From: Hermatobates lingyangjiaoensis | Lineage: Eukaryota > Arthropoda > Insecta > Hemiptera > Hermatobatidae | Direction of reading: 5' to 3' | Length of the DNA: 64,000 nt | Assembly (NCBI GenBank): GCA_026182355.1 | Contig: JAPFBL010000534.1 | Location: forward strand, 52,501-116,500 | In this document: piece by piece, positions 2,455 to 58,995 of the stretch | Numbering within the stretch: the first letter of the stretch is position 1 | Layout of the letters: each line of letters starts with the position of its first letter | Notes under the pieces: model-generated | What the model was told of the DNA's origin: nothing | What the model saw: only the letters and a program-made list of their open reading frames with translations | Database searches by the model: none | Program-made: the position numbers and the translations under genes

Positions 2455-2580
2455 CCCAACCCGTCAGTACCACATCCTTGGTGTCTTCCTGATGATGAAC
2501 ACAAAGTGTTCGAAACGCGTTGAATAAAACTTCATTTGTGTGGAGACTTTTTTGTTTTTATCCATTTTAAATCAGAATTT
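2455..2580 (+). mobile_element. Family B-related terminal segment (sense) with hammerhead-like core
   Basis: It contains CTGATGA, T, then a 6-bp stem GAACAC/GTGTTC with an AAA loop, then GAAACGCGTTG. It continues into a TGTGGAGACTTTT segment shared with 32640-32860. Confidence 0.7.
2489..2520 (+). ncRNA. Hammerhead-like ribozyme motif, family B variant
   Basis: The core CUGAUGA is followed by one extra U, stem II GAACAC/GUGUUC, then GAA and the palindrome ACGCGU followed by U. Activity is untested. Confidence 0.5.
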
Positions 2581-2977
2581 ATTTCTTTTTTGCTTGTGAT
2601 TGTAATCTCGTTTCTGTTAAGCTTCTTCGCTATATTTCTAATATTCTCTGTTTTTCTTTTTTATTTCATAATTTCCATGAGATATAATGTTTTTTTTTTC
2701 TTTTTATTTTAAACAAAAGATAGTTCCCCCAGTTGTTTTGTTAACCTGGCGCCTGCAGTTGCCTGAATACTAAACCCTCGTAACACTCTTGCTTGGTTAG
2801 ATCCAGTTTTGTAATAACGGTATTTCTTAATCCCCCCCCCCCCTTCTCTCATCCTCTACCCAAGTCGTTTACAACACTACTATAGCTCATTATCTAGTTA
2901 GTTCTGTTCAGGTGACGGAATGTTTTGCTCATTTGTTACCTGATACCTATTTTAGTGATGATACTATAATATATATA
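2581..2977. other. T-rich and C-tract stretch, no supported feature
   Basis: Long T runs, a run of C near 2835 and no coding signal that fits a splice frame. Confidence 0.45.
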
Positions 2978-3182
2978 TGATCAAACCGCAATAAGAAATG
3001 GGAAAACAAGACTAAGATCTTTCAACCGTAACAAGGGTTTCGTCAGAGTCAACTCTGACGAAACCGCTTGTTACGGTTTGAAAGATTTTAGTCTTGTTTT
3101 CCCATTTCATTTGTGGTTTGATCATTGATAGTAATACTAACATATATATATATATATATTATATATATATATATATATTTAT
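2978..3182. mobile_element. Family A snap-back element with (TA)n flank
   Basis: The antisense arm at 2978-3053 and the sense arm at 3054-3130 fold back on each other. The sense arm holds CTGACGAAACCGCTTG...GTTTGAAAGAT. A (TA)n tract follows at about 3139-3182. Confidence 0.8.
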
Positions 3183-3330
3183 ATGTTCGAACGCCAAGTC
3201 AGTCGTTATCAGCCTTTGGAGGATTCACTTCTTTTCCTGAAGACGAGGAATCGAAATATAGTAGTGAGTTCAGTGATTTCCTTTCTATGTGTTCTTTTTA
3301 AATTCTAGTTTATATATATTATATATTTTA
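3183..3330 (+). mobile_element. Family C Penelope-like 3' terminal segment (sense)
   Basis: It carries the CAGTCGTTATCAGCCTTTGG segment, the core CTGAAGACGAGG..TCGAAATATAG and the AGTGAGTTCAGTGATTTC tail ending at TCTAGTTTATATATA. The same 3' end follows the GIY-YIG reading frame at 58800-58990. Confidence 0.75.
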
Positions 3331-3879
3331 AAATTATATTTTACCTTTTTTCGAAAAATCAGTTTTCACAATAAATTTACGTAAATAAAAAACCAACAAA
3401 AGATTTATTTTATCCAATTTTTTCCACTAACAGTTTAAATAAAAAAATTACAAACATACAAATTATATATAATTTGTTCAGTTAATTTAGAATCTTAAGG
3501 ATAATAATAAATATAAAATAAATACAATAAAAAATTTAAAATTAAACACAATATAAACCAAAAAAAAATTTTAATGAAAAAAGGATAAGGTTTAACAGGT
3601 TCCTCAAGTTTTTTGACTAACAAAGAAATTTTAGGTTAATTATCTTGTTTTCCTTTATGCAGTTTTAATATTCTTGAGAAGCTCTGGTCTGGTTGTTCAG
3701 GTTCGGCTTCTTTTCTCTTATGCACAGCGCTTCCAGAATGTGTAGCCTTCTCAGGTCATTTTCTTGATAAAGTAATACAATATTTTTATTCAATTCTTCC
3801 CTGGTTAGCTTGAGGCTATGAGTGCTCTCACACTCCTGAAAGAACACACGCAGAGCGTTTTGTATTTGAGTTCTGTGAT

Positions 3880-4160
3880 GATTTAGTTATTAGTCCCTAA
3901 GACTTCCTGAAGATGATCAGAGCTGACAGAAACGTATATAATTTGTATGTATTGTTAATTTGTTTATGGTTAAAACTTGTTTAGTGGAAAAAAAATTGAT
4001 GTCAAGAGTAAATCTTTTGGTGAATTACTTTATATTTTACCAGAAAGGTGGAAATCCATAGTCAGAAAACTTGAAAAATTAACCCGGAAAAGAACAAAAG
4101 TTAGAATTGGCATAATTTTTAATAAAACACACACACATATATATATATATAGTATACTAT
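3880..4160 (+). pseudogene. Penelope-like 5' fragment: hammerhead-like core and ORF N-terminus
   Basis: The core at 3907-3933 reads CTGAAGA, T, a weak stem, GAAACGTA. About 60 nt on, a reading frame gives KSFGELLYILPERWKSI then VRKLEKL and IIFN. It stops at the (TA)n at 4137. The pattern GELL...RKLE...FN recurs in at least nine fragments of this window and always ends at (TA)n. I read it as the start of a Penelope-like ORF. Confidence 0.55.
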
Positions 4161-4162
4161 AA

Positions 4163-4357
4163 AAAAGATTTCACATAAACACGTGAAATAAAAATCAATG
4201 ATCAAACCACAATTTGTAAAGGGAAAACAAGACTAAGATCTTTCAACCAAGTAGTATTCGTCAGAGTTGGGTTTTTGACTCTGACGAAGACCGCTTATTA
4301 CGGTTAAAAGATTTTAGTCTTGTTTTCCCATTTCATTTGTGGTTTGATCATTGATCG
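4163..4357. mobile_element. Family A snap-back element
   Basis: The antisense arm at about 4163-4270 begins AAAGATTTCACATAAACACG. The sense arm runs to 4357. The sense core CTGACGAAGACCGC...ACGGTT is followed by an altered AAAAGAT. Confidence 0.75.
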
Positions 4358-4384
4358 TATACTACATATACTATATACATATAT

Positions 4385-4860
4385 ACAAAACTAAAGTTTA
4401 TCGGGACTCTGTCATTTCTTCAGGTTCAAATTAACTCTCATTGCCAATCTTTCGGTTTTTATTTAAAACCCTTTTCATAGTCAGAAGTATCAATTTTGAA
4501 ACAGAAAAACTAAGTATTACATTACAAATTATTTTACAAAGAGAAAAATAGTATGTGGATTTCAACAACAACTGTAGTTAGAATGAACACGTGACACTGA
4601 ACTGATGAACTGATCACGTGACGTGAACTGAACAGTTCCGTGTCACGTGTTCATTCTAACTACAGTTGTTGTTGAAATCCACAGACTATTTATTTCTCTT
4701 TGTAAAATATTTTGTAATGTAATACTTAGTTTTTCTGTTTCAAAATTGATACTTCTGACTATGAAAAGGGTTTTAAATAAAAACCGATAGATTGGCAATG
4801 AGAGTTAATTTGAACCTGAAGAAATGACAGAGTCCCGATAAACTTTAGTTTTGTTTCTAT
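4385..4860. mobile_element. Family K snap-back element, arms of about 225 bp
   Basis: Both ends carry AAAACTAAAGTTTATCGGGA and its complement. The arms include a TTCTTCAGGTTCAAATTAA block and GGTTTTTATTTAAAACC. The centre near 4585-4645 is a second small palindrome built on GTGACACGTGTTC-type blocks. Copies occur at 5352, 37590, 49130 and 62398. Confidence 0.75.
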
Positions 4861-5159: not shown

Positions 5160-5335
5160 TACTATAACACTTTAAATTACACAAAGCACGACACAGAAAA
5201 GAGAATACAAAGAAAACTTACAGAATTCATATTTCGAACTGTTGTTCGTCATCAGGAGAGTAGACTAGTAGATGGACGAAGTGAGAGAGATTCTCCCCAC
5301 GTCGAAGAACGGAGCGCGAATAAATTATATGATAA
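5160..5335 (-). mobile_element. Family H arm (antisense) with hammerhead-like core
   Basis: The core on the minus strand (5232-5255) reads CTGATGA, C, stem GAAC/GTTC with an AACA loop, GAAATATG. The outer part (AAATTACACAAAGCACGACA) matches the complete hairpin at 13190-13350. Confidence 0.65.
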
Positions 5336-5351
5336 TATATATATATATATA

Positions 5352-5540
5352 TTAAATATATAAAACTAAAAAATGATAGATCGGGATGCGGTCAGTTTCT
5401 TCCACTTTCAATTCAAATCTCATTGCCGACGTTTTCGATTTTATTTAAAATCTTTTTCCAAAAGCCGAAACGTCGGCAAGAAGGTTGATTGAAAGTGGAG
5501 AAACTGACCGCATCCCGATCTATCATTTTTTAGTTGTATA
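5352..5540. mobile_element. Diverged family K snap-back element
   Basis: The left arm has GATCGGGATGCGGTCAGTTT and the right arm its complement. The inner part has CGAAACGTCGGCAA. It is bounded by (TA)n at about 5336-5352 and TATATA after 5570. Confidence 0.7.
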
Positions 5541-7156: not shown

Positions 7157-7179
7157 CTTTACAGTATAAAATATGTATT

Positions 7180-7660
7180 GTAGGGTAAAAAGCTAATGAA
7201 ATGGTCTCCACATATAAAAATTTAATGATAATAAACAACGCGTTTCGAACACGTAGTGTTCTTCTTCAGGTATTATTAACTAAAAAATACAATATCATCA
7301 AAGAGTTATCTATTGTACAAAGTAAATATAGTACAAAATAAAAACACTATGTGTTCGAAACGCCTTGTTTATACGATTAAATTTTTCTAACGTAGTGCAA
7401 TCAGTTATTATGTGGTATTTACTCATTGTAGGGTAAAAATGCTAATGAAATTGTCTCCACAAATAAAAATTTAATGGTATAAACAACTCGTTTCGAACAC
7501 TTAGTGTTCTTCCTCAGGTTTTGTATTTTTTTTAGTTAATGCTTGAAGAATAAACACTACGTGTTCGAAACGCGTTGTTTATACCATTACATTTTTATAT
7601 GTGGAGACCCATTTCATTAGATTTTTACACTACAATTAGTAAATACCACATAATAACTGA
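7180..7660. mobile_element. Two adjacent family B snap-back copies
   Basis: Antisense arms start at about 7180 and 7435; sense segments lie at about 7345-7430 and 7550-7660. Each has ACGTGTTCGAAACG and the TATGTGGAGAC block. The copies are nested or tandem, and the second sense core has lost CTGA (it reads CTTGAAGAATAAACAC). Confidence 0.65.
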
Positions 7661-8574: not shown

Positions 8575-8805
8575 CCAGCGGACTTTTTAAATAAAATAAA
8601 TTCAAAACGAAAGAAACACACAGAAAGACACAGACATAACTCACATCGATATTTCGATGTGACACCGCCATCGATATATTCGGGTGACACCGCCCTGCCT
8701 TCTTGCGTGACTCTTCGCTCTTCACACCTCCTGATGACGATTATGGTCGAAATATCGATGTGAGTTATGTCTGTGTCTTTCTGTGTGTTTCCTTCGTTTT
8801 GAATT

Positions 8806-8867: not shown

Positions 8868-9105
8868 GAATAAACTAGAATTTAAAAAGAACACATAAAA
8901 AAGAAATCACTGAACTCACTACTATATTTCGATGTCCTCGTCTTCAGGAAAAGATGTGAATCGCTCCACATAACGACAGTCGTTATCAGCCTTTGGAGCG
9001 ATTCACATCTTTTCCTGAAGACGAGGACATCGAAATATAGTAGTGAGTTCAGTGATTTCTTTTCTATGTGTTCTTTTTAAATTCTAGTTTATATATATAT
9101 ATATA
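8868..9105. mobile_element. Family C snap-back element just upstream of exon 1
   Basis: The antisense core (8927-8947) and sense core (9015-9035) face each other around GAGCGATTCACATC. The arms end at ATAAACTAGAATTT and AAATTCTAGTTTATATATA. It lies 70 bp before the exon 1 acceptor. Confidence 0.8.
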
Positions 9106-9174
9106 ATCATTCCTTTCGGTAGTTTGTCTGAGTCATTTTTGAATGGCTTGTTGATTAAAACTTTTTTTTTTCAG

Positions 9175-10944
9175 GAAGTAACGTGCAGATATCACGAAGA
9201 GGCAAAAGAAGGGGGGATGCTGTTTTAAGGAAAGCGAAAAATATAAAAAATTCCAGCTTGATTGAAGAACTTTCTGCTGATGGAACGGAAAAAAGGTTTA
9301 CTTTTCCAAATTCTTTTTGCGGTGGAACAACAATTGAAAACAACAATGGAAACAAGGAACAGCTTGATGCCATTGATATGTTAAGGAAATTAGGTACTGA
9401 TGTGTCTGTAGAAGCAATTAGATCAAGAGAAGTCAGTGGGCCTGCAAGAGTTGTTGTATGCTCTGAGGAATCATCAATCAGTGAAACTCCAACAATTAAA
9501 CTTCTTGAGGACATGACTCTCGGAGAAAACCTTCCAATTTCACCTGTTTTAACTGCTCTTGGCCATCAACCAAGAACAAAACGAAAACAACAAGATTTCC
9601 CTGATTTAGAATCCTCTATATTAGAACCGCTTGTCGATATTGTTGAAGAACCTCAAGTGGATAGATTTTTAATTTTCAAACCAGAATCGTTTTTAAGAAC
9701 AAATGATAACGAATCAGAATGGGCCTGTGATATTTGTACAGCTGTTTATAATCAACCGGGGAATTTAAAAAAGCATTATCTTCGACTTCATGTTGCCAGG
9801 CAGTTTATCTCTGAACGCGACATGGAAATCTGTAACATTGATTCAGAACAAGAAGGTGAAAATGATCTTCTTTTTCGTTGTCACGTTTGTAAAAAACTTT
9901 TCCCAAATAAATTAGAAATCAAAAAACACCTGAACGATCATCCACCTGAAACTGTTTTTACAGATACGAAAAATTTCAATCAATATGTTTGTAATAATTG
10001 CGATTCAGTTTTTAAATGGAGAAAATTATTTGGAAAACATAAAAAAGAATGTAAAATCATTTGCGATAAGCCAATTCATCATTGCCTTTATTGCAATGAG
10101 ACATTTTATTCTGCTTATCGTAAGAAGAATCATATACTTAGTAGTCATCCGTATACGAGGAAAAAACATACTTGCGTTTTTTGCTCGAAAGTCTTTCAAA
10201 GTAATAATTTATCGTTGTTTGTTCATTTGATTTCCGATCATAAAGATGTTTATTTCGGTTGTTTGAATTGCAAAGAGAGATTTATATCGAAAGATGAATT
10301 GAATCAGCATTTATTGAAAAGTCATCCAGAGGAGAAAATCGTTGATGGAGAAAGCAAGGAAGGGGAATTTTTCAAGTGCGATAAATGCGGGAGGATGTTT
10401 CTTCGCGATTTATGCCTTCAAGAGCACGACTGTTGTGGATTTGTTGATACAAGCAAAGATAGATTTGTTCGCGATAAAAAGACAAAAGTTATTGAAAGAA
10501 GAGTAGAAGCGGATTTCTTTAGTAGAGTTGTTGATAATGTAAGAGATAATTTAGCTTTTCATTTAGATGGTAAATTAGAACCTGATGATAAACTTTCCTC
10601 AGAACTGCCTGCATCAAATAGGACTATTTTACGATTTTCCGCTGCTGTTCCACCATCAGTAACAACTGTTAAACCACCTGATCCGCCAACATCAAGGCAT
10701 CATCCTTGGGAGAAATTCGCTTTTCCTAAAGAATACGATGGACGGTGCGGTCTTACTTCATATATAAAGGATACTTCTTATCTTGATCTCCATACACAGT
10801 TAGTTATGAGAAGGAATCTTCAAAGGCTTGAAATCATTCCTAATCAAGATGCTGAATCAAGTTGGACTGATGTACCAAGTGTTTTGGCTCTTGAAAGGCT
10901 GGCTGCCCAATGTGCTGAGTCATTTGGCGTCTTCTCTCCTGAAG
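9175..10944 (+). CDS. Exon 1 of traced gene: seven zinc fingers
   Basis: The acceptor is a T-run plus CAG ending at 9174; the donor is GAAG|GTAAAT. The exon starts with 2 nt of a split codon and leaves 1 nt. It gives about 590 residues with no stop. Fingers in order: ACDIC...HYLRLH, FRCHVC...HLNDH, YVCNNC...HKKEC (C2HC), HCLYC...HILSSH, TCVFC...HLISDH, FGCLNC...HLLKSH and FKCDKC...HDCC (Cys as last ligand). The first 180 residues are acidic and Ser/Thr-rich with basic patches (RRGKRRG, TKRKQQ). The C-terminal 150 residues hold no finger. There are no TGEKP linkers, so this is not a KRAB-style array. The paralogue or orthologue is unknown; a DNA-binding role is inferred. Confidence 0.85.
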
Positions 10945-11124
10945 GTAAATAATAAGTGGTTTTTTTTTTCTGTATATAGACGCTCCCCAACTAACGAACA
11001 TTCGATTCGATACGATACAGACTTTGTCAATACATTTATCAAATTTTTATATATACGTAAAAACAATGAAACGCTGTAAGTTAGATTTTGTATTGAGCAC
11101 TTTATGTTTCCAATATGTTATGTT

Positions 11125-11250: not shown

Positions 11251-11702
11251 TTGTGTACAAAGGCAGCAGGTCTTCCCTTAAGCATATGTTATTAAAATAA
11301 GCAGCAGCTTCTGCATTGACCAGTTTCTTGTTGACACTCTCTAGTTTTCGTATCACTTTGCGGTGAGACTCTGGTAGCTTCCAAAGAAGGTTAGCAAAAG
11401 ACATTAACACACACATTAAACATAGGTCAAACACGAAAAACTAAATTTTAATCACTGTTTTAATCACTAAATTAACAAACTAAATAAAAGTACGTACAAG
11501 GTACGTATTTTTTTGTACGTATTTTTATTTAGTTTGTTAATTTAGTGATTAAAATTTAGTTTTTCGTGTTTGACCTATGTTTATTGTGTGTGTTAATGTC
11601 TTTTGCTAACCTTCTTTGGAAGCTACCAGAGTCTCACCGCAAAGTGATACGAAAACTAGAGAGTGTCAACAAGAAACTGGTCAATGCAGAAGCTGCTGCT
11701 TA

Positions 11703-11762
<60 letters not shown>
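11251..11762. mobile_element. Inverted pair of Penelope-like 5' ends carrying an ORF start
   Basis: The minus-strand copy (11251-11460) and plus-strand copy (11535-11710) are near-identical and meet head to head around GTACGTACAAGGTACGTA. Each encodes MSFANLLWKLPESHRKVIRK, then LESVNKKLVNAEAAAYFN. The minus copy continues to CLREDLLPLYT and the plus copy ends at (TA)n. This matches the recurrent N-terminal module. No hammerhead core is visible at this centre. Confidence 0.65.
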
Positions 11763-13402: not shown

Positions 13403-13431
<29 letters not shown>

Positions 13432-13433
<2 letters not shown>

Positions 13434-14200
13434 AAACACTTTTTCTTTTTCTCGGAGTTTGGTCAGGGTAAATATATGGAATCACCTTTTTGCCAACGTT
13501 TCGTCTTTATTTCAAGACATCCTCAGGGCTATAAACTAACAAAAAACAATAAACAATGGACATTTTTTCATTTCTACTTTAAAAACATCATAAACAAATT
13601 GAAAAAAGAACTTACTGAAGGCTTGGTTCTGTTACATTTGCAAACAACCGTTAACTGTCATTACATGTGCTGTTCCAAGCGACATATTATTGAACCACTG
13701 TTTTTTTAGTACAGTCATATATATATATAAACATATATACATATACACATATTATAATATATATCTATTATAATATGTATCACCATAATATGTATTATTA
13801 ATGTATTATTAATGTATTATAGATATATATTATGGTGATACATATTATAATAGATATATATTATAATATGTATATATGTTTATATATATATATATATGAT
13901 TGTACTAAAAAAACAGTGGTTCAATAATATGTCGCTTGGAACAGCACATGTAATGACAGTTAACGGTTGTTTGCAAATGTAACAGAACCAAGCCTTCAGT
14001 AAGTTCTTTTTTCAATTTGTTTATGATATGATGTTTTTAAAGTAGAAATGAAAAAATGTTGTCCATTGTTTATTGTTTTTTGTTAGTTTATAGCCCTGAG
14101 GATGTCTTGAAATAAAGACGAAACGTTGGCAAAAAGGTGATTCCATATATTTACCCTGACCAAACTACGAGAAAAAGAAAAAGTGTTTTGTGAATATTTT
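13432..14200. mobile_element. Family J long inverted repeat (about 300-bp arms)
   Basis: Arms 13432-13725 and 13895-14200 are almost perfect complements. The inside is a further AT palindrome of about 170 bp. Antisense and sense hammerhead-like cores sit at 13498-13526 and 14096-14124. The outer ends read ACACTTTTTCTTTTTCTCGG. A partial antisense copy lies at 37985-38060. Confidence 0.85.
14096..14132 (+). ncRNA. Hammerhead-like ribozyme motif, family J
   Basis: All three stems can be drawn: stem I GCC/GGC, core CUGAGGA plus an extra U, stem II GUCUU/AAGAC, GAA, and stem III as the palindrome ACGU followed by U. Predicted cleavage would follow the U after ACGU. Confidence 0.55.
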
Positions 14201-18519: not shown

Positions 18520-18780
18520 AGAACAAGTTCTTGTTGAAGATGGGTGACACCTGAAACCGGTCCGAGAGCTACGGCAGCAATGTACGAGGTAAGACGGTAT
18601 CTTATGTGTTTAATAGTTAATATACATTTGATTGAACAACAAATGACGGTATTTTGCTGCGGTAGATTTCTTCACTAGATTTCTTTTCTTCATCTAAACT
18701 TTGAAGAATATTTATTAAGGTGGATCAAAACATGTTTCGACCGGCCTTCAGTCATCTTCAGGGTGAATTATGTAAAATGT
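18520..18780. mobile_element. Two Penelope-like terminal relics with hammerhead-like cores
   Basis: A sense relic at about 18530 reads TTGAAGATGGGTGACACCTG followed by AAACCGGTC. A minus-strand core at 18734-18761 reads CTGAAGA, T, GACT/GGTC stem, GAAACATGTTT. The palindromes ACCGGU and ACAUGU would serve as stem III. Confidence 0.5.
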
Positions 18781-19576: not shown

Positions 19577-19870
19577 TCATTTTACTGCATATATATGTAT
19601 ATTGGTGTATGAAGGCAGCAGGTCTTCTCTTAAACAGGTATAATTAAAGTTGGCAGCAGCTTCTGCGTTGACCAATTTCTTACTGATGTTCTCTAGTTTC
19701 CTAACTTGTTTTCGGTAACTTTCGGGTATTTTCGAAAGGAGTTCTGCTAACGACATGAAAGGAAAGAAGTTGAACACTAAACACTTTAAACTAAAACTAT
19801 AATTTGAAATTTAATCTAAAACACAAGCTTTCGGCTCACATTAGCCATCATCAGGTAAAAAACGAAAATA
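19577..19870 (-). pseudogene. Penelope-like 5' fragment: hammerhead-like core and ORF N-terminus
   Basis: On the minus strand the core lies at 19828-19854, then about 75 nt, then ATGTCGTTAGCAGAACTCC. The frame gives MSLAELLSKIPESYRKQVRK, LENISKKLVNAEAAANFN and CLREDLLPSYTN. It ends in ATATATGTATATT-like sequence. This is the cleanest single copy of the 5' module. Confidence 0.65.
19820..19860 (-). ncRNA. Hammerhead-like ribozyme motif upstream of a Penelope-like ORF
   Basis: Core CUGAUGA plus an extra U, stem II GGCU/AGCC, GAA, stem III palindrome AGCU followed by U, and stem I AC/GU. It lies 5' of the ORF start, where Penelope-like terminal repeats are expected. Confidence 0.55.
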
Positions 19871-30148: not shown

Positions 30149-30529
30149 GTGAGACATCGAGTATGTATGTATGTATGTAATGTTTCTCTAAGAAAGAAAC
30201 ACATCTGTTATTTTTTAAGAATTGAAAAATAGAATTATACCCGTCCTGAATGGAAAGTGCAACACAATGATGGCACATACTTCTAAATATCGACAATTTT
30301 CTCCTGATGACGACGATTGTACAAGCAGTGCACGTTCAATGTAAATATCTTCAGTTTAAAAGATATGTAAATTTATATCTTTGTTAAATACATGCATATT
30401 GTTAATACCACTGAGGTTATTATGATTTTTATTAGAAATAAGTAAAACCGTCATACCTCGTAAGATGATCATGGAGTTGGAGCGCTTTCGGACGTTGTCC
30501 ATCTTCAATCGTAACAAATCTAAAATCAT

Positions 30530-30965
30530 TGTAGGGTAAAAATCTAATGAAATGGTCTCCACATATAAAAATGTTAATGATATAAACAACGCGTTTCGAA
30601 CACAAAGTTTTCTTCCTCAGGCATTAACTAAAAAATACAATGACACCAGAGAGTTATCTATAGTACAAAGTAAATAAGTACAAAAAGTAATATAAAATAA
30701 AATAAGGCAGAAAGTACGAACCTAAGGATGAGTGCCTCTGAAGGTTCGTACTTTCTGCCTTATTTTATTTTATATTAATTTTTGTACTTATTTACTTTGT
30801 ACTATAGATAACTCTCTGGTGTCATTGTATTTTTTAGTTAATGCCTGAGGAAGAACACTACGTGTTCGAAACGCGTTGTTTATATCATTAAAATTTTTAT
30901 ATGTGGAGACACCATTTCATTAGATTTTTACCCTACAATGAGTAAATACCACATAATAACTGATT
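30530..30965. mobile_element. Family B snap-back element, arms of about 195 bp
   Basis: The left arm (30530-30725) and right arm (30740-30935) are almost perfect complements. They carry CGCGTTTCGAACAC and GTGTTCGAAACGCG, TCTATAGTACAAAGTAAATA and AGTTAATGCCTGAGG. The outer sequence (30925-30965) is the unit that later forms the 57-bp minisatellite at 54514. Confidence 0.85.
30838..30878 (+). ncRNA. Hammerhead-like ribozyme motif, family B
   Basis: Core CUGAGGA plus an extra A, stem II GAACAC/GUGUUC with a UAC loop, GAA, stem III palindrome ACGCGU followed by U. Stem I is weak (GC/GU). Confidence 0.55.
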
Positions 30966-32564: not shown

Positions 32565-32860
32565 TCATATAAACACGTGAAATAACAATCAATGATCAAA
32601 CCATTGGTTTTTCTTTGTTTGATCACTCATATGTATTTTGAGGTAAAATGGATAAATAAGCAAAAGTCTCCACACAAATGAAGATTTATTCAACAACAAC
32701 AACGCGTTTCGAACACTTTGTGTTCATCATCAGGAAGACAAAGTGTTCGAAACGCGTTGTTGTTGTTAAATAAAACTTCATTTATGTGGAGACTTTTGTT
32801 TGTTTATCCATTTTACATAAGAATGAGTAAATACTAAAGAATTACAGATTGCACAACTAA
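32565..32860. mobile_element. Partial family A arm and family B-variant snap-back
   Basis: Positions 32565-32610 are an antisense family A end. From 32640 a hairpin carries CGCGTTTCGAACACTTTGTG and, at 32735, GTGTTCGAAACGCGTTGTTG, with arms ending TGTGGAGACTTTTG. The antisense core (32704-32732) is intact; the sense side has lost CTGATGA. Confidence 0.7.
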
Positions 32861-32929: not shown

Positions 32930-33900
32930 ACCTGTTTCTCTTGTTACAATTTTTCGAGATAGCTTCTCCAGTTTTCCTCAGAGTTCCACACATCAGCTAC
33001 TAAGTATAATAACTCTCCTAAAGATTTACTTATTAAATCCATTTATTCTTTAGTATATGAAATAGACAATGAAAATAAAAGCAACGTTTCGGTCTTCTTT
33101 GACCATCTTCAGACTGTAAACAAATATAAAACTACTTACTAGACAAAATTATAAAAGTTATACACTACAATACTATAGAAAAGTTCAGAATAAACAACCA
33201 ACATTGTAGAACTATTCAGTAAGCTTCATATATTTGATGGTTTTTGGAAATTTGAAATTAGAACCTTCAAATTATAAAGTTGACGCAATAGTTCTACAAT
33301 GTTATTTTTTATTTTCAACCTTTATATAGTATGTGGTGTATGATTTTTATAATTTTGAGTAGTAAGTAGTTTTATATTTAATAATGTTATATTTGTTTAC
33401 ACCCCTGAGGATGGTCAAAGAAGATCGAAACGTTAGTTTATTTTTATTGTCTATTGCAAGGGTCTTCGACCTATGGGTTTTATCGCGACCCCCTCGGGTC
33501 GCAAATAAATATTTGAAATTGTTTATTATTAAAAATAGAAAATAAAGGACTAAATTAAATAAATAATGTATTTATTATTAATGCGGCACAGCAATTTCAT
33601 TAAAGTTACTGTTAATCAAATTTATTTTAATTTTCTCTTTTATATTTGTTGTCATTTTTATTTGTGTTCACACTAAAGGGTCGCGAATCAATTTTGGCGT
33701 CAAAAATTAGTTGCGATGTAAAAAAGGTTGAAGATCCCTGTTCTATTGCATCTACTGAAGAATAGATGGATTTCACTAGTAAATCTTTAGGAGAGTTATT
33801 AAACTGAGTAGCTGACGTGTGGAACTCTGAGATAAGAAAACTGGAGAATCTATCTCGAAAAATTGTAACAAGAGAAATAGCTAATCAACGTTCTGCCGTC
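32930..33900. mobile_element. Inverted Penelope-like 5' ends (ORF start plus core), with internal hAT
   Basis: Minus copy: core at 33086-33112, then ATG and KSLGELLYLVADVWNSE. Plus copy: core at 33405-33431, then (after the hAT) ATGGATTTCACTAGTAAATC, KSLGELLN with a stop, and RKLENLSRKIV. Both frames are broken. Confidence 0.65.
33457..33740. mobile_element. Short hAT-like MITE inside a Penelope-like copy
   Basis: It starts CAAGGGTCTTCGACC and ends GGTTGAAGATCCCTG. The flanks gtctattg and ttctattg match at 7 of 8 bases. It is related to 6896-7156 but in the opposite orientation. Confidence 0.8.
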
Positions 33901-34677: not shown

Positions 34678-34927
34678 TGTTTCACGATGAATCACAAACA
34701 CAGAACTAAGGAAAAAACAGACTCACTGTCTCTAATTTTTGGTTAAACCGTCATCAGGAGAGTTGATTCCAACCGTCGCTTCACAAGTGCGCTTGGTGTC
34801 CCTATCTCAACTCTCCTGATGACGGTTCAACCGAAAATTAGAGACAGTAAGTCTGTTTGTTCCTTAGATCTGTGTTTGTGATTCATCGTGAAACGTTTGT
34901 TGCCCTTTCGGATCGTTTTCCTGTTTA

Positions 34928-35994: not shown

Positions 35995-36350
35995 TATATA
36001 TATATTATTGAAATGACACCAAATTTAGCTGATACCTGTTTCTTAACAAGTTTCTCAATTTTTCTAAATAACACTCTCGTTATTTCGTCTACACAATAAA
36101 GTACATCTCCTATGGTTGACCAGATATTTCACCTTAGATCTTATTCGCGTCCTGATGATCAATGTTGATCATTCGAAACATGTCGACCATAGGAGATGTA
36201 CTTTATTGTGTAGACGAAATAACGAGAGTGTTATTTAGAAAAAGTGAGAAACTTGTTAAGAAACAGGTATCAGCTAAATTTGGTGTCATTTTCAATAATG
36301 TGTGTGTCAAAGAAGGACTGCTACCAAAATTTACGAATATATATATATAT
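35995..36350. pseudogene. Inverted Penelope-like 5' ends (ORF start plus core)
   Basis: The plus copy has its core at 36152-36179 (CTGATGATCAATGTTGATC then GAAACATGTC) running straight into ATGTCGACCATAGGAGATGT, then TRVLFRKSEKLVKKQVSAKF and CVKEGLLPKFTNIY before (TA)n. The minus copy (35995-36110) repeats LVKKQVSAKFGV. Stem I GUC/GAC and stem III ACAUGU are present. Confidence 0.6.
36145..36190 (+). ncRNA. Hammerhead-like ribozyme motif overlapping a Penelope-like ORF start
   Basis: Core CUGAUGA, long stem II built on GAUCAA/UUGAUC, GAAACAUGUC. The palindrome ACAUGU contains the AUG that opens the adjoining frame. Confidence 0.45.
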
Positions 36351-36352
36351 AC

Positions 36353-37399: not shown

Positions 37400-37570
37400 T
37401 ATATCAATGATAAAACCACAATAATAAAATGGGAGTCAGTTGGGTTTTTGACTCTGACGAAGACCGTTTATTACGGTTGAAAGATCTTAGTCTTGTTTTC
37501 CCATTTCTTATTGTGGTTTGATCATTGATTGTTATTTCACGTGTTTATGTGAAATCTTTTTATATAGATA
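37400..37570. mobile_element. Family A snap-back with shortened antisense arm
   Basis: The antisense part is only 37405-37435; the sense part is complete from CAGTTGGGTTTTTGACTC to CGTGTTTATGTGAAATC at 37557. Confidence 0.75.
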
Positions 37571-37589
37571 TATATTTATTAATAAAAGT

Positions 37590-37913
37590 ATCGACCGTGG
37601 AATAGAAACAAAACTAAAGTTTATCGGGACTCGGTCAGTTCTTCAGGTTCAAATTAAACTCTCATTGCCAACGTTTCGGTTTTTATTTAAAACCTTTTTC
37701 ATAGGCAGAAGTATAAATTTTGAAACAGGAAAAACTAAGTATTATATTACAAATTATTTTTCTTTGTAAAATAATTTGTAATGTAATACTTATTTTTTAT
37801 GTTTCAAAATTTATACTTCTGCCTATGAAAAAGGTTTTAAATAAAAACTGAAACGTGGGTAATGAGAGTTTTTGAACCTGAAGAACTGACCGAGTCCCGA
37901 TAAACTTTAGTTT

Positions 37914-37955
<42 letters not shown>
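37590..37955. mobile_element. Family K snap-back element with (TA)n
   Basis: The ends carry AAACTAAAGTTTATCGGGAC and its complement; the apex is ACAAATTATTTTTCTTTGTAAAAT. (TA)n lies at 37922-37955. Confidence 0.8.
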
Positions 37956-37958
<3 letters not shown>

Positions 37959-37969: not shown

Positions 37970-38600
37970 TTTTAACCACAAAATATTAACAAACACTTTT
38001 TCTTTTTCTCGGAGTTTGGTCAGGGTAAATATATGGAATCACCTTTTGCCAACGTTGTGTCACAACCGAAACATGTCATGTTATGTTATGTTAATCATTA
38101 AATATTGATGGCTTACCAGAGTTTCGCTCAAATAATCCACCAGCTAAATCAAGACGATTTAAAATTAGAAAGGAAATATGAAAAACTGCTCAAAAAAAAA
38201 GGTATGTTTAATTAAGGCAATTCAGTTCAACACAATATATATATATATATATATATATATACTTTTTCATTGGAAAGACGATCTGAAACAGACAAATATA
38301 GTTCAATATAGACAAAGAAACATAGAGAAATTAAAATCATACACTTACTATGTTTCTGTATGTTTCTTTTCCTACATTGAACAATATATATATCGAAGTT
38401 TAGTCGAAGGTTTTATCTGGTTAAGATTGTTATTCCTTTAAATAATGTAAAATTCATTTTGTTAGTTTAAAAAAATTCTTACTTCTGCCTATGAAAAAGG
38501 TTTTAAAATAAAACCGAAACGTCGGCAATGAGAGTTTGATTTTTGAACCTAGAAAATTTGACCTAATCCCGATTAGATAACACACCTAATCTATCAAACG
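37970..38600. mobile_element. Partial family J, F and K relics
   Basis: 37985-38060 is the antisense outer end of family J. 38263-38390 has the TTTTCATTGGAAAGACGATC and GTTCAATATAGACAAAGAAA blocks seen at 46108-46180. 38470-38580 is a sense family K core region (CTATGAAAAAGG...ACCGAAACGTCGGC). Confidence 0.55.
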
Positions 38601-43499: not shown

Positions 43500-43760
43500 A
43501 TATATTTAGGCAGCAGATTTTCCTTGATACATATTTCATTAAATTCTCTTTAGATCCTTCTTCTTTTCACTTTTTTTAAATAACTTTATAATAAGTTGTT
43601 TAAAATTTTCAGCTATACGTAATAACAATTCTTACGTAATGTTTTATTCACAATCCTTGTAGTTATTATTAACAGCTGTTTACAAAAATAACTTTTTTTA
43701 CAATTAACCGACGTTTCAAGTCACCATTGACCATCATCAGGTTATTATTATATTCTGACT
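43500..43760 (-). pseudogene. Penelope-like 5' fragment
   Basis: The minus-strand core at 43713-43740 is followed after about 150 nt by a decayed frame that ends EFNEICIKENLLPKYI at a TATATAAATATA edge. This is the FN..C.KE.LLPKYT module. Confidence 0.5.
43706..43748 (-). ncRNA. Hammerhead-like ribozyme motif
   Basis: Core CUGAUGA plus an extra U, stem II GGUCA/UGACU (5 positions), GAA, stem III palindrome ACGU followed by C. Confidence 0.5.
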
Positions 43761-46107: not shown

Positions 46108-46430
46108 TACACTTTTTCGTTGGAAATACGATCCAAAACGGACAAATATAGTTCAACATAGAAAAAGAAACATAGAGAAATGAAAAGAACACACTTACAG
46201 TCTCTGATTCTCGGTTTGAACCGTCTTCAGGAGAGATAAGAGAGGGAAACCAAGCCCACTGGTTCAGAGACGGTTGGGACGGTCTCTGTACCAGTGCACT
46301 TGGTTTGCCTCTCTTATCTCTCCTGAAGACGGTTCAAACCGAAAATCAGAGACTGTAAGTGTGTTCTTTTCATTTCTCTATGTTTCTTTTTCTATATTGA
46401 ACCATATATATATATAGTTCAATGTATGTA
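46108..46430. mobile_element. Family F snap-back element
   Basis: The arms carry TTCGTTGGAAATACGATCC and GAAAAAGAAACATAGAGAAA with complements. The sense core at 46323-46344 is CTGAAGA, C, GGTT/AACC stem, GAAAATCAG. The apex is AAGTGCACTGGT-like. Confidence 0.8.
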
Positions 46431-48899: not shown

Positions 48900-49130
48900 T
48901 ATAAAATCAAACAATGATCAAACCACAATAAGAAAATGGGAAAACAAGACTAAGATCTTTCAACCGTAACAAGCGGTCTTCGTCAAAAACCAGTTGGGTG
49001 TTTGACTCTGACGAAGACCGCTTGTTACGGTTGAAAGATCTTAGTCTTGTTTTCCCATTTTCTTATTGTGGTTTGATCATTGATTGTTATTTCACGTGTT
49101 TATGTGAAATCTTTATATATATATATATAA
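48900..49130. mobile_element. Family A snap-back element, well preserved
   Basis: The antisense arm 48905-48990 and sense arm 48991-49112 are nearly identical. Sense core CTGACGAAGACCGCTTG...ACGGTTGAAAGATCTTAG; stem I GACU/AGUC. (TA)n follows. Confidence 0.85.
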
Positions 49131-49690
49131 AACACTAAAGTTTATCGGGACTCGGTCAGTTCTTCAGGTTGAAATTAAACTCTCATTGCCGACGTTTCGT
49201 TTTTTATTTAAAATCGATTTCAGAAGTCTAAAAAAAGAGAAAATATAAGAAATAATACAATCATTCAAAAATTAAAAAAAAAAGGACAAAAAGTTACAAA
49301 TAAGAAAATATAGTAGAAGTTTTGTCAAGTGAGTGAAAGAACTTACAGAAGTATAAAATATGGAAACGGAACTTGAGTCATACATTAGAGTTTTTTTTTC
49401 TTTAAAGCAAACAATTTCCGAATATCAACAAACTGTCGTCTCGTTTGAACAAAGCCATGTCACTGAACTGCAACCAAGCATAGCTACCAAATTTTACCAG
49501 ACAAAACAAATATTCACATTGTGTTTAAGTGAATGCTCTATTGTTTAAGTGAATTTTTCCTTTGTCTAGTGAAATTTCGTTGTTTTGTTCTTGGTTGAAG
49601 TTCAGTGACTATAGACTATTTAAATTTAAATAAATATAAATTTAAACCGAAACGTCGGCATTTCGAGTTTATTTTGAGAGTTGTATTATT
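49131..49690. mobile_element. Family K element with diverged interior
   Basis: The antisense end 49131-49215 (ACTAAAGTTTATCGGGACTC) and a sense remnant 49625-49680 (TAAACCGAAACGTCGGCATT) enclose about 400 bp, including a small inverted pair near 49440 and 49580 (GTTTGAACAAAG/CTTGGTTG). Confidence 0.5.
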
Positions 49691-50080: not shown

Positions 50081-50220
50081 CTTTTATATTTCGACATTAG
50101 TCGTCATCAGGAGAAGAAAATATCTCATTGGAGTTACTCAAACCTCTCAGTTCATCTCTCTTGATGACAACCGATTGTCGAAATATAGAAGTGTATCTGA
50201 TTTCTTTCCAAGTTTTCTTT
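50081..50220. mobile_element. Snap-back element with hammerhead-like cores (family N)
   Basis: The minus-strand core at 50087-50110 is CTGATGA, C, GAC/GTC stem, GAAATATA. The sense copy at about 50158 reads CTTGATGACAACCGATTGTC then GAAATATAG. Confidence 0.6.
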
Positions 50221-52927: not shown

Positions 52928-52983
<56 letters not shown>

Positions 52984-54222: not shown

Positions 54223-54513
54223 TCGGATATATTGTTTGTGAGGAGGATGCTTGTAGTTTCAAAAATCTAGAAATATGATGTAGATTTAGTAACTTTAATT
54301 ACATTACATATATAATAGTCCAGAGGTAACAGGGACGTTACCATTGAGTTAACCTAGTCCTCTCAGATGATATTGATAAAGGAATATTATAAACATTAAC
54401 TTATCGAGTTTTACTTTTCTATAGAACACATTTTATTTTAAAATAACAATAATGGGACCATTAAAGGAATAGGTCCTTCATACAAATAAGTTTTACGACA
54501 AAAGTAATAACAA

Positions 54514-55185
54514 TACATGTTTTCTAAGGTAGTATAATCAGTTATTATGTGGTATTTACCCTACAATGAATACATGTTTTCTAAGGTAGTGCAATCAGTT
54601 ATTATGTGGTATTTACCCTACAATGAATACATGTTTTCTAAGGTAGTGCAATCAGTTATTATGTGGTATTTACCCTACAATGAATACATGTTTTCTAAGG
54701 TAGTGCAGTCAGTTATTATGTGGTATTTACCGTACAATGAATACATGTTTTCTAAGGTAGTGCAATCAGTTATTATGTGGTATTTACCCTACAATGAATA
54801 CATGTTTTCTAAGGTAGTGCAATCAGTTATTATGTGGTATTTACCCTACAATGAATACATGTTTTCTAAGGTAGTGCAATCAGTTATTATGTGGTATTTA
54901 CCCTACAATGAATACATGTTTTCTAAGGTAGTGCAATCAGTTATTATGTGGTATTTATCCTACAATGAATACATGTTTTCTAAGGTAGTGCAATCAGTTA
55001 TTATGTGGTATTTATCCTACAATGAATACATGTTTTCTAAGGTAGTGCAATCAGTTATTATGTGGTATTTATCCTACAATGAAAACATGTTTTCTAAGGT
55101 AGTGTAATCAGTTATTATGTGGTATTTATCCTACAATGAATACATGTTTTCTAAGGTAGTGCAATCAGTTATTCTGTGTTATTTA
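54514..55185 (+). repeat. Tandem repeat, 57-bp unit, about 11.5 copies
   Basis: The unit includes GTAGTGCAATCAGTTATTAT, GTGGTATTTACCCTACAATG and AATACATGTTTTCTAAG. Since 57 is 3 x 19 an open frame results, but it is not a gene. The unit is the outer flank of family B elements (30925-30975, 7400-7440). Confidence 0.95.
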
Positions 55186-55254
55186 CCCATGTTTTGTTAG
55201 AGTGGGATATGTGGCAAGAGAAGACCAGTTGAATCTGGTTAGGCTGTCAACAAA

Positions 55255-55300
55255 TGTGACCTGAAGAAGAACACCAAGTGTTTGAAACGACTGGCTATTG
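55255..55300 (+). mobile_element. Family B-like terminal relic
   Basis: The core at 55261-55288 reads CTGAAGA, A, GAACACCAAGTGTTT, GAAACGACTGG. It lies directly after the 57-bp array, as expected if the array arose at the edge of this element. Confidence 0.55.
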
Positions 55301-56249: not shown

Positions 56250-56395
56250 TCTACTTTCCGGTTTAACCATCATCAGGAGAGAAGACAGTGCGTTTGTTAT
56301 CTCACTCTCTTCTCCCCTAATGACAATTAAACTGATTATTAGAGACTGTAAGTGTGTGTTATCTATTTACTGTTTACCCTTAAACGTTTTGTCCC
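56250..56395. mobile_element. Degraded family E snap-back
   Basis: GTTTAACCATCATCAGGAGAGAAG and CTCTCTTCTCCCCTAATGAC face each other; TTAGAGACTGTAAGTGTG follows. CTGATGA is mutated on the sense side. Confidence 0.55.
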
Positions 56396-56800: not shown

Positions 56801-57281
56801 TAACAAAAGTACACTAAAAAACAAACATTTAACCATACAAATACAAAAGAATTGAATAAATAATGAATTAATATGTAAAAACAGAGTTTCAGGTGCATGA
56901 TTTTGGTACGTGGGTGGTTTTCAGGTGGAAGATTTTGGTACACGGGTGTCTCCCGCTAGCGTACGTAAACGTACGGTAGTGTAGGTCACGTCTGGTGCTT
57001 AATTTTGTCGTGCAGAGTTTGCCATGTTTGTTTTTGTTTACCAATCCTAGTACGGCCTAGCCTACCGGGATGAAATTTTTTCGTGCAAAGTTTTCCAGGT
57101 TTCATTTGATCAATTTTTCGTGTTGAGTCTGCCATGTTTTTTTACCTATCCTAGTCAGGCCTAGCCTACCGGGATGGAATTTTTTGGTGCAGAGTTTGTC
57201 AGGTTTGTGCATTGGTTTGAGCCTTTTTTTCGTGCAGAGTCTGATACCCTATGCTACGGTAGGACTAGCCAACATTAATGT
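56801..57281. other. Unassigned stretch with TTTTTCGTGCAGAGT repeats
   Basis: Blocks such as CGTGCAGAGTTTGCCATG and CCTAGCCTACCGGGATG occur two or more times (57010, 57065, 57130, 57165), so a short irregular direct repeat of about 110 bp is present. Confidence 0.45.
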
Positions 57282-57387
57282 AAAGTAAAAAACTATCCGC
57301 TAGCTGTCAACCCTCTTTGAAGAGGGTAATACGAGGGCAATAGCCTCTTCAAAGAGGGTTGACAGCTAGCGGATAGTTTTTTACTTT
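57282..57387. repeat. Perfect 44-bp inverted repeat
   Basis: 57282-57325 and 57344-57387 are exact complements with an 18-nt spacer. The right side continues directly into the family A 3' UTR block, so it is likely part of that element rather than a separate RNA gene. Confidence 0.85.
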
Positions 57388-57640
57388 TTCTTACTGTACT
57401 CCTTTGTTTCCCCAAACATCCCTTTCTAGACATTAGTCCCTTCCTGCACTTTCACCCTTTTAAAATACCACTCTTCCCTCCCACTCTTCTCAACTCCTCA
57501 CCAGATGTTTTCTGCATCTAGTGTTCAGTTGGGTTTTTGACTCTGACGAAGACCGCTTGTTACGGTTGAAAGATCTTAGTCTTTTTTTCCCATTTCTTAT
57601 TGTGGTTTGATCATATATATATATATATATATATAATTCT
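57388..57640 (+). mobile_element. Family A 3' UTR plus complete sense end and (TA)n
   Basis: CTTTGTTTCCCCAAACATCC...CTCACCAGATG is followed by TTGGGTTTTTGACTCTGACG, the core, and TGGTTTGATC, then (TA)n at 57614. It is collinear with 20130-20360. Confidence 0.7.
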
Positions 57641-57654
57641 ATCTTTTTTCCGAC

Positions 57655-58025
57655 CACAAAAAATAACATTAAACAGCAGAGGATATTGAGGATTGGTCCA
57701 CACACACAAACACTTCACTTACGCCAACGTTTCGCTATATTTTTATATCATCATCAGGGCTTTACAAATAACAAGATATATGTCCGACAGATAGACACAA
57801 CGAAAATAGTAGTAAATATTACAAAACTTTTACATTGTAAATATAACTTACAATATATACTAACTTACTTACTTACTTACTTACTTTCTTTCTTACATTG
57901 GTCTTTCAGAGCAATGATGCTACAAAAATATAGCGAAACGTTGGCGTAAGTGAAGTGTTTGTGTGTGTAGACCAACCCTCAATAACCTCTGCTGTTTACT
58001 AATATATATATATATATATATATAA
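57655..58025. mobile_element. Snap-back element with ACGTTGGCG core
   Basis: Arms CAGCAGAGGATATTGAGG and CCTCAATAACCTCTGCTG pair, as do CACTTCACTTACGCCAACG and its complement. The minus-strand core at 57729-57757 reads CTGATGA, T, AT-rich stem, GAAACGTTGG with stem I GCC/GGC. The interior carries an (ACTT)n microsatellite. (TA)n follows. Confidence 0.75.
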
Positions 58026-58300
58026 ACCAGTTCAAAATCAAAGAAGAGTAACACAAAGAGTAAGGAAACACATAGAACTTCCATCTTCAGGAGAAAAGAG
58101 AGAGGGAGAGACAAGAATGTTGTAGGCCTAACGGCAAGTAACCCACAAAGTGCGCCTATAACGTGCCTGGTCTCCCTCTCTCTTTTCTCCTTAAGGAGGT
58201 TTGTTCGAAAATTTGAGTGTGATAAACATATTTCTTTTCTTTGGGTATTACTGTTCTTCGATTTTGAACTTGTATATGTCCAGTTTGGATGGTCCTTCCG
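58026..58300. mobile_element. Family F-related snap-back, degraded
   Basis: CAGTTCAAAATCAAAGAAGA and TCTTCGATTTTGAACTTG pair across a variable centre containing CTTCAGGAGAAAAGAGAGAG and CTCTCTTTTCTCCTTAAGGA. Confidence 0.65.
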
Positions 58301-58324
58301 ACTTTAAAGTTTATCTATATAAAC

Positions 58325-58995
58325 TAGATTTTTCAAAAGAACACACAGAAAAGAAATCACTGAACTCATTAAGACCTCTTGTACCTCTGGTAACTGCGTT
58401 TACCGTTTGGATTGCACCCAGTGTGATTCTTTTTATGTGGGTTTGGCTTCCACCAAGCTAAGCCTGCGTATGAATAATCACAGGTCATCCGTTGGCAAAC
58501 GCAGTGACCTTCCCGTTGCTACTCATGCCAGTTCTCACGGACTCAGTTTTAATGACTGTTTCCGTGTACAGGTCCTGAGGCAGATTGATCAGACTAATTC
58601 GAAAGTTACTCTGAGAGCTTCAGAAGAAGCACTTATTAGTCTTCTGGGCAGTAGATCGGCTCCTGGGCTTAACCTCAATCGTTGATTTTTTTTTTTTTTT
58701 TTTTAAAGTTGTTATCAGCTTTTAATTTTATTTTAGTTAAATGTTTTCATTTTTTAATTTTTATTTGGCTTTTATTTCTTTATCTTCCTTGTTTCCCTTT
58801 CCTCTGAAAGTTGGCTACACTGTTTGAGTGCTTCAGTTTGAACGCCAAGCCAGTCGTTATCAACCTTTGGAGCGATTCACATCTATTTCTGATGACGAGG
58901 ACTTCGAAATGTAGTAGTGAGTTCAGTGATTTCTTTTCTGTGTGTTCTTTTGAAAAGTCTAGTTTATTCAGTTCGAAGAATTTTTTCATCTAATT
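58325..58995 (+). mobile_element. Penelope-like element: inverted end, endonuclease ORF, 3' end (family C)
   Basis: 58325-58368 is an antisense family C end. Coding sequence runs to a stop at 58684, then a T-run and an AT-rich 3' UTR, then the complete sense family C end with core at 58889-58909 and TCTAGTTTATTCAGTTCG. This ties a snap-back family to a coding retroelement. Confidence 0.8.
58371..58684 (+). pseudogene. GIY-YIG endonuclease fragment of a Penelope-like ORF
   Basis: The frame reads KTSCTSGNCVYRLDCTQCDS, then FYVGLASTKLSLRMNNHRSS and later VATHASSHGLSFNDCF. GNCVY..C..C...YVG...L..R...H is the zinc-binding plus GIY-YIG start of Penelope-like endonucleases. The C-terminus is ASEEALISLLGSRSAPGLNL NR-stop. 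It is 5'-truncated: no reverse transcriptase is present. Confidence 0.85.

What the first reader, a model, noticed from the sequence alone, without database searches (positions are those of the whole stretch)
2489..58909. Ten or more unrelated repeat families share one hammerhead-ribozyme layout with an extra core nucleotide
Seen directly: cores at 2489(+), 3907(+), 5232(-), 8731(+), 9015(+), 13498(-)/14096(+), 18734(-), 19828(-), 30845(+), 33086(-), 33405(+), 34816(+), 36152(+), 42215(+), 43713(-), 46323(+), 50087(-), 57729(-), 58889(+) and most family A copies. Each reads CUGANGA, then one extra base (U, C or A), then a stem-loop of 2-6 bp, then GAA, then in nearly all a short palindrome ending in U (ACGU, ACGCGU, AGAUCU, AGCU, ACAUGU, AUAU, AAUU), then a non-G base. 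Stem I also pairs in several: GACU/AGUC in family A, GCC/GGC in J, CUCU/GAGA in E, GUC/GAC at 36152. Stem, loop and palindrome differ between families while the invariant hammerhead bases stay. Known: hammerheads are reported in Penelope-like elements, and an extra base after A9 is known in a viroid hammerhead. Inference: these are (ex-)ribozymes of Penelope-like terminal repeats, and the extra base is a shared trait.
Basis: partly seen in the sequence, partly recalled or inferred. Interest (0 to 1): 0.85.

Follow-up and report, generated by a model that had tools for sequence, protein, structure and literature searches.

The report
Ribozyme-bearing Penelope-type retroelement ends
This stretch of animal-like DNA is littered with broken ends of what look like Penelope-type jumping genes, most of them carrying a tiny hammerhead ribozyme motif with one extra core letter; the kind of element is already known, but the constancy of the extra letter across many families is informative.

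Summary
A descriptor scan finds 48 hammerhead-like cores; 39 have exactly one base after A9, against about 1.2 expected. Across 17 groups unlinked by BLAST, stem II pairs in the one-insert register far better than with swapped strands (43 of 51 pairs; 0 of 20,000 shuffles), and 15 of 17 have a palindromic stem III. The cores sit in Penelope-like (PLE) termini: 29 of 45 lie within head-to-head inverted pairs, families A and F3 have two alternative 3' ends about 30-40 bp apart, the PLE 'tail', ends abut (TA)n runs, ORF-start peptides follow three cores, and a sub-threshold GIY-YIG match precedes another. Minimal dimer-type hammerheads of PLEs are known. Corrections: the families are diverged ends of one kind of element; stem I support is weak; the extra base is not PLE-specific (10 of 19 phage-type hammerheads score best with it). 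Copies rarely start at the predicted cut, and one related family (F20) has the scaffold without CUGANGA. Catalysis is untested. New member of a known kind, moderate interest.

The parts
57543..57577 (+). Family A hammerhead core to H17: CUGACGA+A, 5-bp stem II, GAA, AGAUCU, U; stem I GACU/AGUC
2489..2521 (+). F2 core, insert U, 6-bp stem II, palindrome ACGCGU
3907..3936 (+). F4 degenerate core; stem II poor in the one-insert register
3974..4159 (+). ORF-start peptide downstream of the F4 core, running into a TA-rich end
   Evidence: PLE assignment inferred
5228..5255 (-). F5 core, insert C, 4-bp stem II, AUAU, G at position 17
8731..8756 (+). F6 core, insert C, 3-bp stem II, AUAU
8870..9092 (.). 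F3 head-to-head palindrome (93%) with cores at 8947(-) and 9015(+); the two arms have the long and the short 3' end
13425..14197 (.). F8 head-to-head palindrome (94%) with cores at 13526(-) and 14096(+); insert U, 5-bp stem II, ACGU, stem I GCC/GGC
18729..18761 (-). F9 core, insert U, 5-bp stem II, ACAUGU; no stem I pairing
19825..19854 (-). F10 core, insert U, 4-bp stem II, AGCU
19580..19810 (-). ORF-start peptide downstream of the F10 core (MSLAELLSKIPESYRKQVRKLE...LREDLLPSYTNI)
   Evidence: PLE assignment inferred
30526..30941 (.). F7 head-to-head palindrome (94%) with cores at 30620(-) and 30845(+); insert A, ACGCGU
33058..33458 (.). F11 head-to-head palindrome (76%) with cores at 33112(-) and 33405(+)
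34679..34894 (.). F12 head-to-head palindrome (83%), core at 34816(+), insert C, AAUU, stem I CUCU/GAGA
36004..36299 (.). F13 head-to-head palindrome (86%), core at 36152(+), with an ORF-start peptide (36159-36380)
43710..43740 (-). F14 core, insert U, 2-bp stem II in register, ACGU; a degenerate ORF start lies downstream
46146..46407 (.). F15 head-to-head palindrome (92%), core at 46323(+), insert C; no exact palindrome in stem III
50085..50110 (-). F16 core, insert C, 3-bp stem II, AUAU
55261..55291 (+). F17 core, insert A, 6-bp stem II; stem III not palindromic (ACGA)
56251..56276 (-). F18 degenerate core: one more G before GAA, no palindrome, G at position 17
57670..57998 (.). F19 head-to-head palindrome (76%), core at 57757(-), insert U, ACGU, stem I GCC/GGC, one mismatch in stem II
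58372..58682 (+). C-terminal ORF piece with a sub-threshold GIY-YIG match, about 207 bp upstream of the F3 core at 58889(+)
   Evidence: Pfam PF01541 on 58374-58682: E=0.0013, 19.4 bits, cut-off 22.6; part of a second copy at 61701-61754(-)
58319..58371 (-). inverted F3 tail arm at the left end of the same insertion
58889..58913 (+). F3 core downstream of the GIY-YIG-like piece; insert C, AUGU in place of an exact palindrome
11290..11710 (.). head-to-head palindrome (91%) with ORF-start peptides on both arms; no core match inside it
37560..37956 (.). F20 head-to-head palindrome (85%): GCC-UAUGAAAAA-GGUUUU..AAAACC-GAAACGUUGGC on the minus arm, scaffold without CUGANGA
4379..4860 (.). second F20 palindrome (94%) with CUAUGAAAA on both arms

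Best explanation
The motifs are minimal type I hammerheads, many of them decayed, in the pseudo-LTRs of diverged Penelope-like elements that inserted preferentially at AT-rich sites. Each insertion would start by reverse transcription at one of two sites just downstream of the hammerhead (giving ends with or without the 'tail'), run upstream through the hammerhead and the pLTR, and often be made from both target strands or by self-priming, giving head-to-head inverted copies. Shown here: the motif, its one-insert register, stem II covariation, the palindromic stem III, the inverted architecture, two alternative 3' ends in families A and F3, and (TA)n flanks. Inferred: PLE identity, the insertion route, and that living copies cleave weakly as dimers (palindromic stem III) or with protein help, as published for other PLEs. 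The extra base after A9 is a tolerated core variant kept through this diversification.
For: 39 of 48 cores with one insert against 1.24 expected. Stem II in the one-insert register: 17 groups, 43 of 51 pairs, 0 of 20,000 shuffles; for 0 inserts 149 and for 2 inserts 11,814 of 20,000. Covariation score 0.443 against 0.187 shuffled and at most 0.145 when slid; 14 cells changed on both sides against 4.5 (16 representatives, two linked pairs among them). Palindrome in 15 of 17 groups against 151 of 1,217 window GAAA sites. 29 of 45 cores within an inverted pair. Two 3' ends: A short in 121, 3046, 57543, long in 14361, 29247, 32210, 37454, 42614, 49008; F3 short in 3237, 9015, 35018, long in 8947, 58889. 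35 of 66 palindrome ends near a (TA)n run of at least 10 nt, against 3.7 random, 0 of 2,000. GIY-YIG-like ORF end upstream of 58889. ORF-start peptides downstream of F10, F13 and F4 and in two further elements. Same architecture in PMC3846280 (passages) and PMC11167929 (main text).
Against: The GIY-YIG match is below Pfam's cut-off; protein searches with the ORF start and the GIY-YIG piece found nothing at E<=1; no RT piece was identified. Minimum-energy dimers do not show the full double hammerhead (0 of 20; F2 forms stems II and III but not I). Stem I is weak. Of 31 family-A matched stretches only 1 starts at the predicted cut. Family F20 and the 11290-11710 element lack the core. The host genome could not be searched and the host is unknown.
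Confidence: 0.9

Rival explanations
1. Some or most families, A above all, are non-autonomous retrozyme-like (SINE-like) retroelements with type I hammerheads, mobilised by PLEs, rather than pLTR pieces of autonomous PLEs. (Compatible in part with the best explanation.)
For: I saw no coding sequence in family A, and 11 of its 31 matched stretches start 15-19 nt before the core, a fixed 5' end; PMC7229834 and PMC7761336 (passages) describe metazoan retrozymes co-occurring with PLEs.
Against: Published retrozymes are tandem repeats with mostly canonical hammerheads; here none of the 48 cores lies in a tandem array of period 50 or more, and copies are dispersed or inverted. F10, F13, F4 and F3 are tied to ORF pieces.
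Confidence: 0.25
2. The hammerhead scaffold in these termini works as a recognition or ORF-start structure for the PLE protein, and catalysis is dispensable.
For: F20 keeps stem I, stem II and GAAACGUUGG without CUGANGA: 5 CUAUGAAAA sites in this context, on arms of three insertions. 5' ends of family A do not mark the cut. Hammerhead mutants still insert in vitro in PMC11167929.
Against: C3, U4, G5, A6, G8, A9, G12, A13 and A14 are invariant in 16 aligned representatives, although the core was also the search criterion. F20 is not proven to be a PLE.
Confidence: 0.25
3. Chance or low-complexity artefact of a repeat-rich, AT-rich window.
For: Repeats inflate raw copy counts, and Rfam finds nothing.
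Against: Group-level tests use one representative per unlinked group, and the shuffle expectation is 1.24.
Confidence: 0.01

Closest known systems
Minimal type I hammerheads of Penelope-like elements (Cervera and de la Pena 2014; Lunse et al. 2017; neither paper held, known here through passages of PMC7761336, PMC6155905, PMC6466107 and recall)
   Same: Dispersed in animal genomes, in pLTRs, helix III minimal, cleaving as dimers.
   Different: Here the one-base insert after A9 is counted across 17 unlinked groups of one locus; whether those papers report it could not be read.
PAc, Poseidon PLE of Anolis (PMC11167929)
   Same: Hammerhead at the pLTR-ORF junction, two RT start sites in the early ORF that explain the 30-40 bp 'tail', AT-rich targets, both strands extended.
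   Different: Families here are mostly short and broken; whether the PAc core has an insert is in a figure not held.
Penelope elements of Adineta vaga (PMC3846280)
   Same: Inverted pLTRs, most often head-to-head, palindromes at the junction, AT-rich targets, optional 31-bp tail.
   Different: Hammerheads are not mentioned in that paper's main text (0 occurrences).
A viroid hammerhead with an extra core nucleotide (De la Pena and Flores 2001, seen only as a title in PMC6155905; that it is chrysanthemum chlorotic mottle viroid and the site is after A9 is recalled)
   Same: One extra core nucleotide.
   Different: Viroid, not a retroelement.
Phage and prophage hammerheads (PMC3088659, sections 6 and 8 read)
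   Same: 10 of 19 distinct ones found here by their 3' half score best with one base after A9.
   Different: Stems I, II and III complete by eye; no retroelement context seen.

Membership tests
Hammerhead ribozyme | Core CUGANGA ... GAAA with A15.1-U16.1 and H17 | tested here: met
   31 of 38 one-insert hits have a palindrome after GAA and a non-G at position 17; the one-base insert departs from the strict consensus, but PMC10085705 (passage) allows one or two bases between CUGAnGA and the stems
Hammerhead ribozyme | Stem II with covariation | tested here: met
Hammerhead ribozyme | Stem I pairing | tested here: inconclusive
   38 of 68 pairs against 31.8 shuffled, 655 of 20,000
Hammerhead ribozyme | Covariance match to Rfam hammerhead models | tested here: not met
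   the same library at gathering reported no hammerhead in 21 viral contigs, most of which hold hammerheads with all three stems by eye, so the test is insensitive
Hammerhead ribozyme | Self-cleavage | not testable with these tools
   needs a bench test; 0 of 20 minimum-energy dimers show the full double hammerhead
Penelope-like element | GIY-YIG endonuclease at the ORF C-terminus | tested here: inconclusive
   E=0.0013, 19.4 bits, cut-off 22.6; nothing in the protein search
Penelope-like element | Telomerase-like RT domain | not tested
   only 10 chosen ORFs, and part of one again, were scanned with Pfam; the ORF list (176 of 236 ORFs shown, first 100 residues) was read by eye and showed no RT
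Penelope-like element | pLTRs with inverted, head-to-head copies and AT-rich targets | tested here: met
Penelope-like element | Optional 30-40 bp 'tail' at the 3' end | tested here: met
   two 3' ends in A and F3; F12 and F15 also show a shorter and a longer end; three A copies (3055, 41167, 60901) diverge and 14396 is degenerate
Penelope-like element | Hammerhead at the pLTR-ORF junction | tested here: inconclusive
   F10, F13 and F4 cores are followed by ORF-start peptides that align with each other; their identity as PLE N-termini is recalled and was not confirmed by search
[quoted passage not shown]
   0 of 48 cores lie in a tandem array of period 50 or more

The most novel reading that the evidence does not exclude
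The single base after A9 marks a widespread hammerhead subclass, kept across PLE diversification and found also in phages, that tunes self-cleavage down so that it needs dimers or the element's protein; the scaffold also has a non-catalytic role, since a related family (F20) spread without the core.
Probability: 0.25. Interest if true: 0.6.

Novelty: new member of a known kind. Interest (0 to 1): 0.38.

Why it matters
What hammerheads do for Penelope-like elements is called unknown in the review passages seen here (PMC7761336). One locus with many diverged families allows comparative tests: the insert register stays while loop, stem and palindrome change; 5' ends of family A do not mark the cut; and one related family lacks the core. 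This argues for constraint on the scaffold without requiring cleavage in every family, and it warns that Rfam thresholds miss such motifs.

Tried and rejected
Rfam over the window and on two cores: no hammerhead. The many miRNA-family matches include several at palindrome centres (30675-30787, 32684-32775) and are read as foldback artefacts. Protein searches with the ORF-start and GIY-YIG pieces gave nothing at E<=1. The zinc-finger ORF found three unnamed proteins, so the host stays unknown. The idea that insertions begin at the ribozyme cut was tested on family A and not borne out. RNAcofold on 20 representatives with 8-nt flanks: 0 full double hammerheads. Viral scans with PLE-like ends returned 5, 5, 0, 13 and 3 stretches and no recognised PLE, but led to the phage hammerheads, the pattern without the insert, no hit had more than 3 stem II pairs.

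Dropped before counts: for, 45 cores were used, that is the 48 less 2348, 4602, 9463, 55389 and 63960 (chance-like by eye), plus 36152 and the F19 core. For one search, 33 of 37 self-palindromes (53 rows), with or without a core; dropped were 7177-7636, 7213-7389, 13818-13894 and 49459-49609. For one search, F7, F15 and F15b, linked to F2 or F12. In one search, 16 of 20 representatives were aligned; F4, F13, F15b and F18 were left out. Representatives were chosen with the descriptor, so stem II counts are partly conditioned on pairing; the register comparison is the safer test. In one search the cut was set one base short for F3 and F19; family A is not affected. After this check I raised the main confidence from 0.87 to 0.90, because one search shows the PLE-type optional tail, which I had first described as one fixed end per family.
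Full report
Check of the observation. I scanned both strands for CUGANGA, then 0, 1 or 2 free bases, a stem II of at least 2 pairs and GAA. The window has 48 hits: 8 with no free base, 39 with one, 1 with two. Fifty dinucleotide shuffles give 4.46 hits on average, 1.24 of them with one free base.

Family structure. By BLAST within the window the 20 representatives fall into 17 groups without a family link: A, F2/F7, F3, F4, F5, F6, F8, F9, F10, F11, F12/F15, F13, F14, F16, F17, F18, F19. Group names are mine; some cross-matches come from neighbouring elements in the query and were not counted as links. With one representative per group, the first three stem II pairs form in 43 of 51 cases in the one-insert register (shuffled mean 32.8; 0 of 20,000 shuffles reach it), in 25 of 51 for no insert (149 of 20,000) and 19 of 51 for two (11,814 of 20,000). 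On 16 representatives 94.5% of cells pair against 71.8% shuffled, and 14 cells changed on both sides against 4.5. Fifteen of 17 groups have a palindrome after GAA, against 151 of 1,217 GAAA sites in the window. Stem I is only modestly above chance (38 of 68 pairs against 31.8; 655 of 20,000). The inserted base is U, C or A, never G, in 20 representatives.

A covariance model from the 16 representatives returns 73 window matches at E<=1, 41 of them under 0.01; the training sequences match by construction, and its E-values are rough.

What carries the motif. Of 45 cores examined, 29 lie within the span of an inverted pair, mostly head-to-head palindromes whose outer ends are the downstream ends of the element. 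In families A and F3 two alternative 3' ends occur, about 30-40 bp apart and each followed by TA-rich DNA: A is short in three copies and long in six (three diverge, one is degenerate), F3 short in three and long in two. Of 66 ends of 33 palindromes, 35 have a (TA)n run of 10 nt or more within 60 nt, against 3.7 for random placement. Downstream of F10, F13 and F4, and in two elements between 11290 and 12928, lie peptides that align with each other (consensus MSxGxLLxxLPExxRxxVRKLExLxKKxVNAExxxxFNxxCLxEDLLPxYTxI). Upstream of the F3 core at 58889 lies an ORF end with a weak GIY-YIG match (E=0.0013, 19.4 bits, cut-off 22.6), and part of a second copy lies at 61701-61754. That the peptides are PLE N-termini, and that the end SAPGLN is a PLE-type C-terminus, is recalled and was not confirmed (searches found nothing).

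Fit with the literature. PMC3846280 (passages) describes Penelope insertions with inverted pLTRs, most often head-to-head, palindromes at the junction, an optional 31-bp tail and AT-rich targets. PMC11167929 (main text) reports a PLE whose ORF begins at hammerhead stem II, whose RT starts at two sites in the early ORF that explain a 30-40 bp tail, which extends both target strands, and whose hammerhead cleaves only with protein and is not needed for insertion in vitro. PMC7761336 and PMC6155905 (passages) report thousands of minimal type I hammerheads in animal genomes and their presence in PLEs. [quoted passage not shown] The window fits this picture.

Is the extra base special? A scan of IMG/VR with only the 3' half of a phage-type hammerhead returned 40 stretches. 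Of 43 matches in the loci held, 23 had no CUGANGA upstream; 20 (19 distinct) had it, of which 10 distinct score best with one inserted base and 9 with none. Of these, L039 rests on two pairs, L025, L049 and L059 form only one pair in their best register, and L024 ties between registers 0 and 3. They keep all three stems by eye. So the insert is compatible with a full hammerhead and is not confined to PLEs. Rfam at gathering reported no hammerhead in the 21 such contigs scanned, so its silence on the window means little. I judge the contigs to be phages only by collection and by eye. PMC3088659 (sections 6 and 8) discusses core variants and tandem phage hammerheads; an insertion after A9 is not named in those sections, and its figures are not held.

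Function. If cleaved RNA were the usual template, copies would begin right after H17. Of 31 family-A matched stretches (the query among them), 11 begin at -19 to -15, 10 at -10 to +1, and 1 at the predicted cut. In F3, one inverted arm begins within 2 nt of the cut. Family F20 (4379-4860, 37560-37956, 38444-38573 and more degenerate copies) has, in its better copies, GCC-UAUGAAAAA-GG...CC-GAAACGUUGGC, i.e. the stem I and GAAACGUU of F8 and F19 and a stem II, without CUGANGA; its PLE nature is inferred from architecture alone. Together these suggest that cleavage does not define insertion ends, and that the scaffold can outlive the core.

Limits. The host genome could not be searched, the host is unknown, and no full-length element was seen. 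Lunse 2017, Cervera 2014 and Craig 2021 were not held, so whether the extra base is already described in PLEs is open.

Verdict. Real, well above chance, and best read as decayed PLE termini with minimal hammerheads: a new member of a known kind. The counted constancy of the insert and the coreless F20 family are the parts worth following.

Noticed in passing
L003 minus strand, 3687-3734, 3994-4040 and a canonical third near 3340; L001 11739-11776(+); also L028, L030, L033, L041, L042, L047, L053: IMG/VR viral contigs with hammerheads carrying one base after A9 and, by eye, complete stems; L003 has two such motifs about 306 nt apart plus a no-insert one. Rfam at gathering does not report them.
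   Followed up: partly
window 4379-4860, 37560-37956, 38444-38573, 49114-49222, 62425-62533, 5335-5458: Family F20: hammerhead-like stems and GAAACGUUGG, with CUGANGA replaced by UAUGAAAA in the better copies.
   Followed up: partly
window 54512-55188, with the flanks of 30845(+) and 7517(-): A 57-bp satellite array shares about 39 nt with the sequence just downstream of F7 copies, so F7 may have inserted into, or given rise to, the satellite.
   Followed up: no
L033 1126-1156 and 1404-1456: A twister-P5 ribozyme (Rfam 56.8 bits) lies about 250 nt downstream of a one-insert hammerhead in the same viral contig.
   Followed up: no
window 26696-26938(-): ISXO2-like transposase fragment (Pfam PF12762, E=2.3e-6).
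   Followed up: no
window 9159-10949(+): A C2H2 zinc-finger ORF with three unnamed database relatives.
   Followed up: partly
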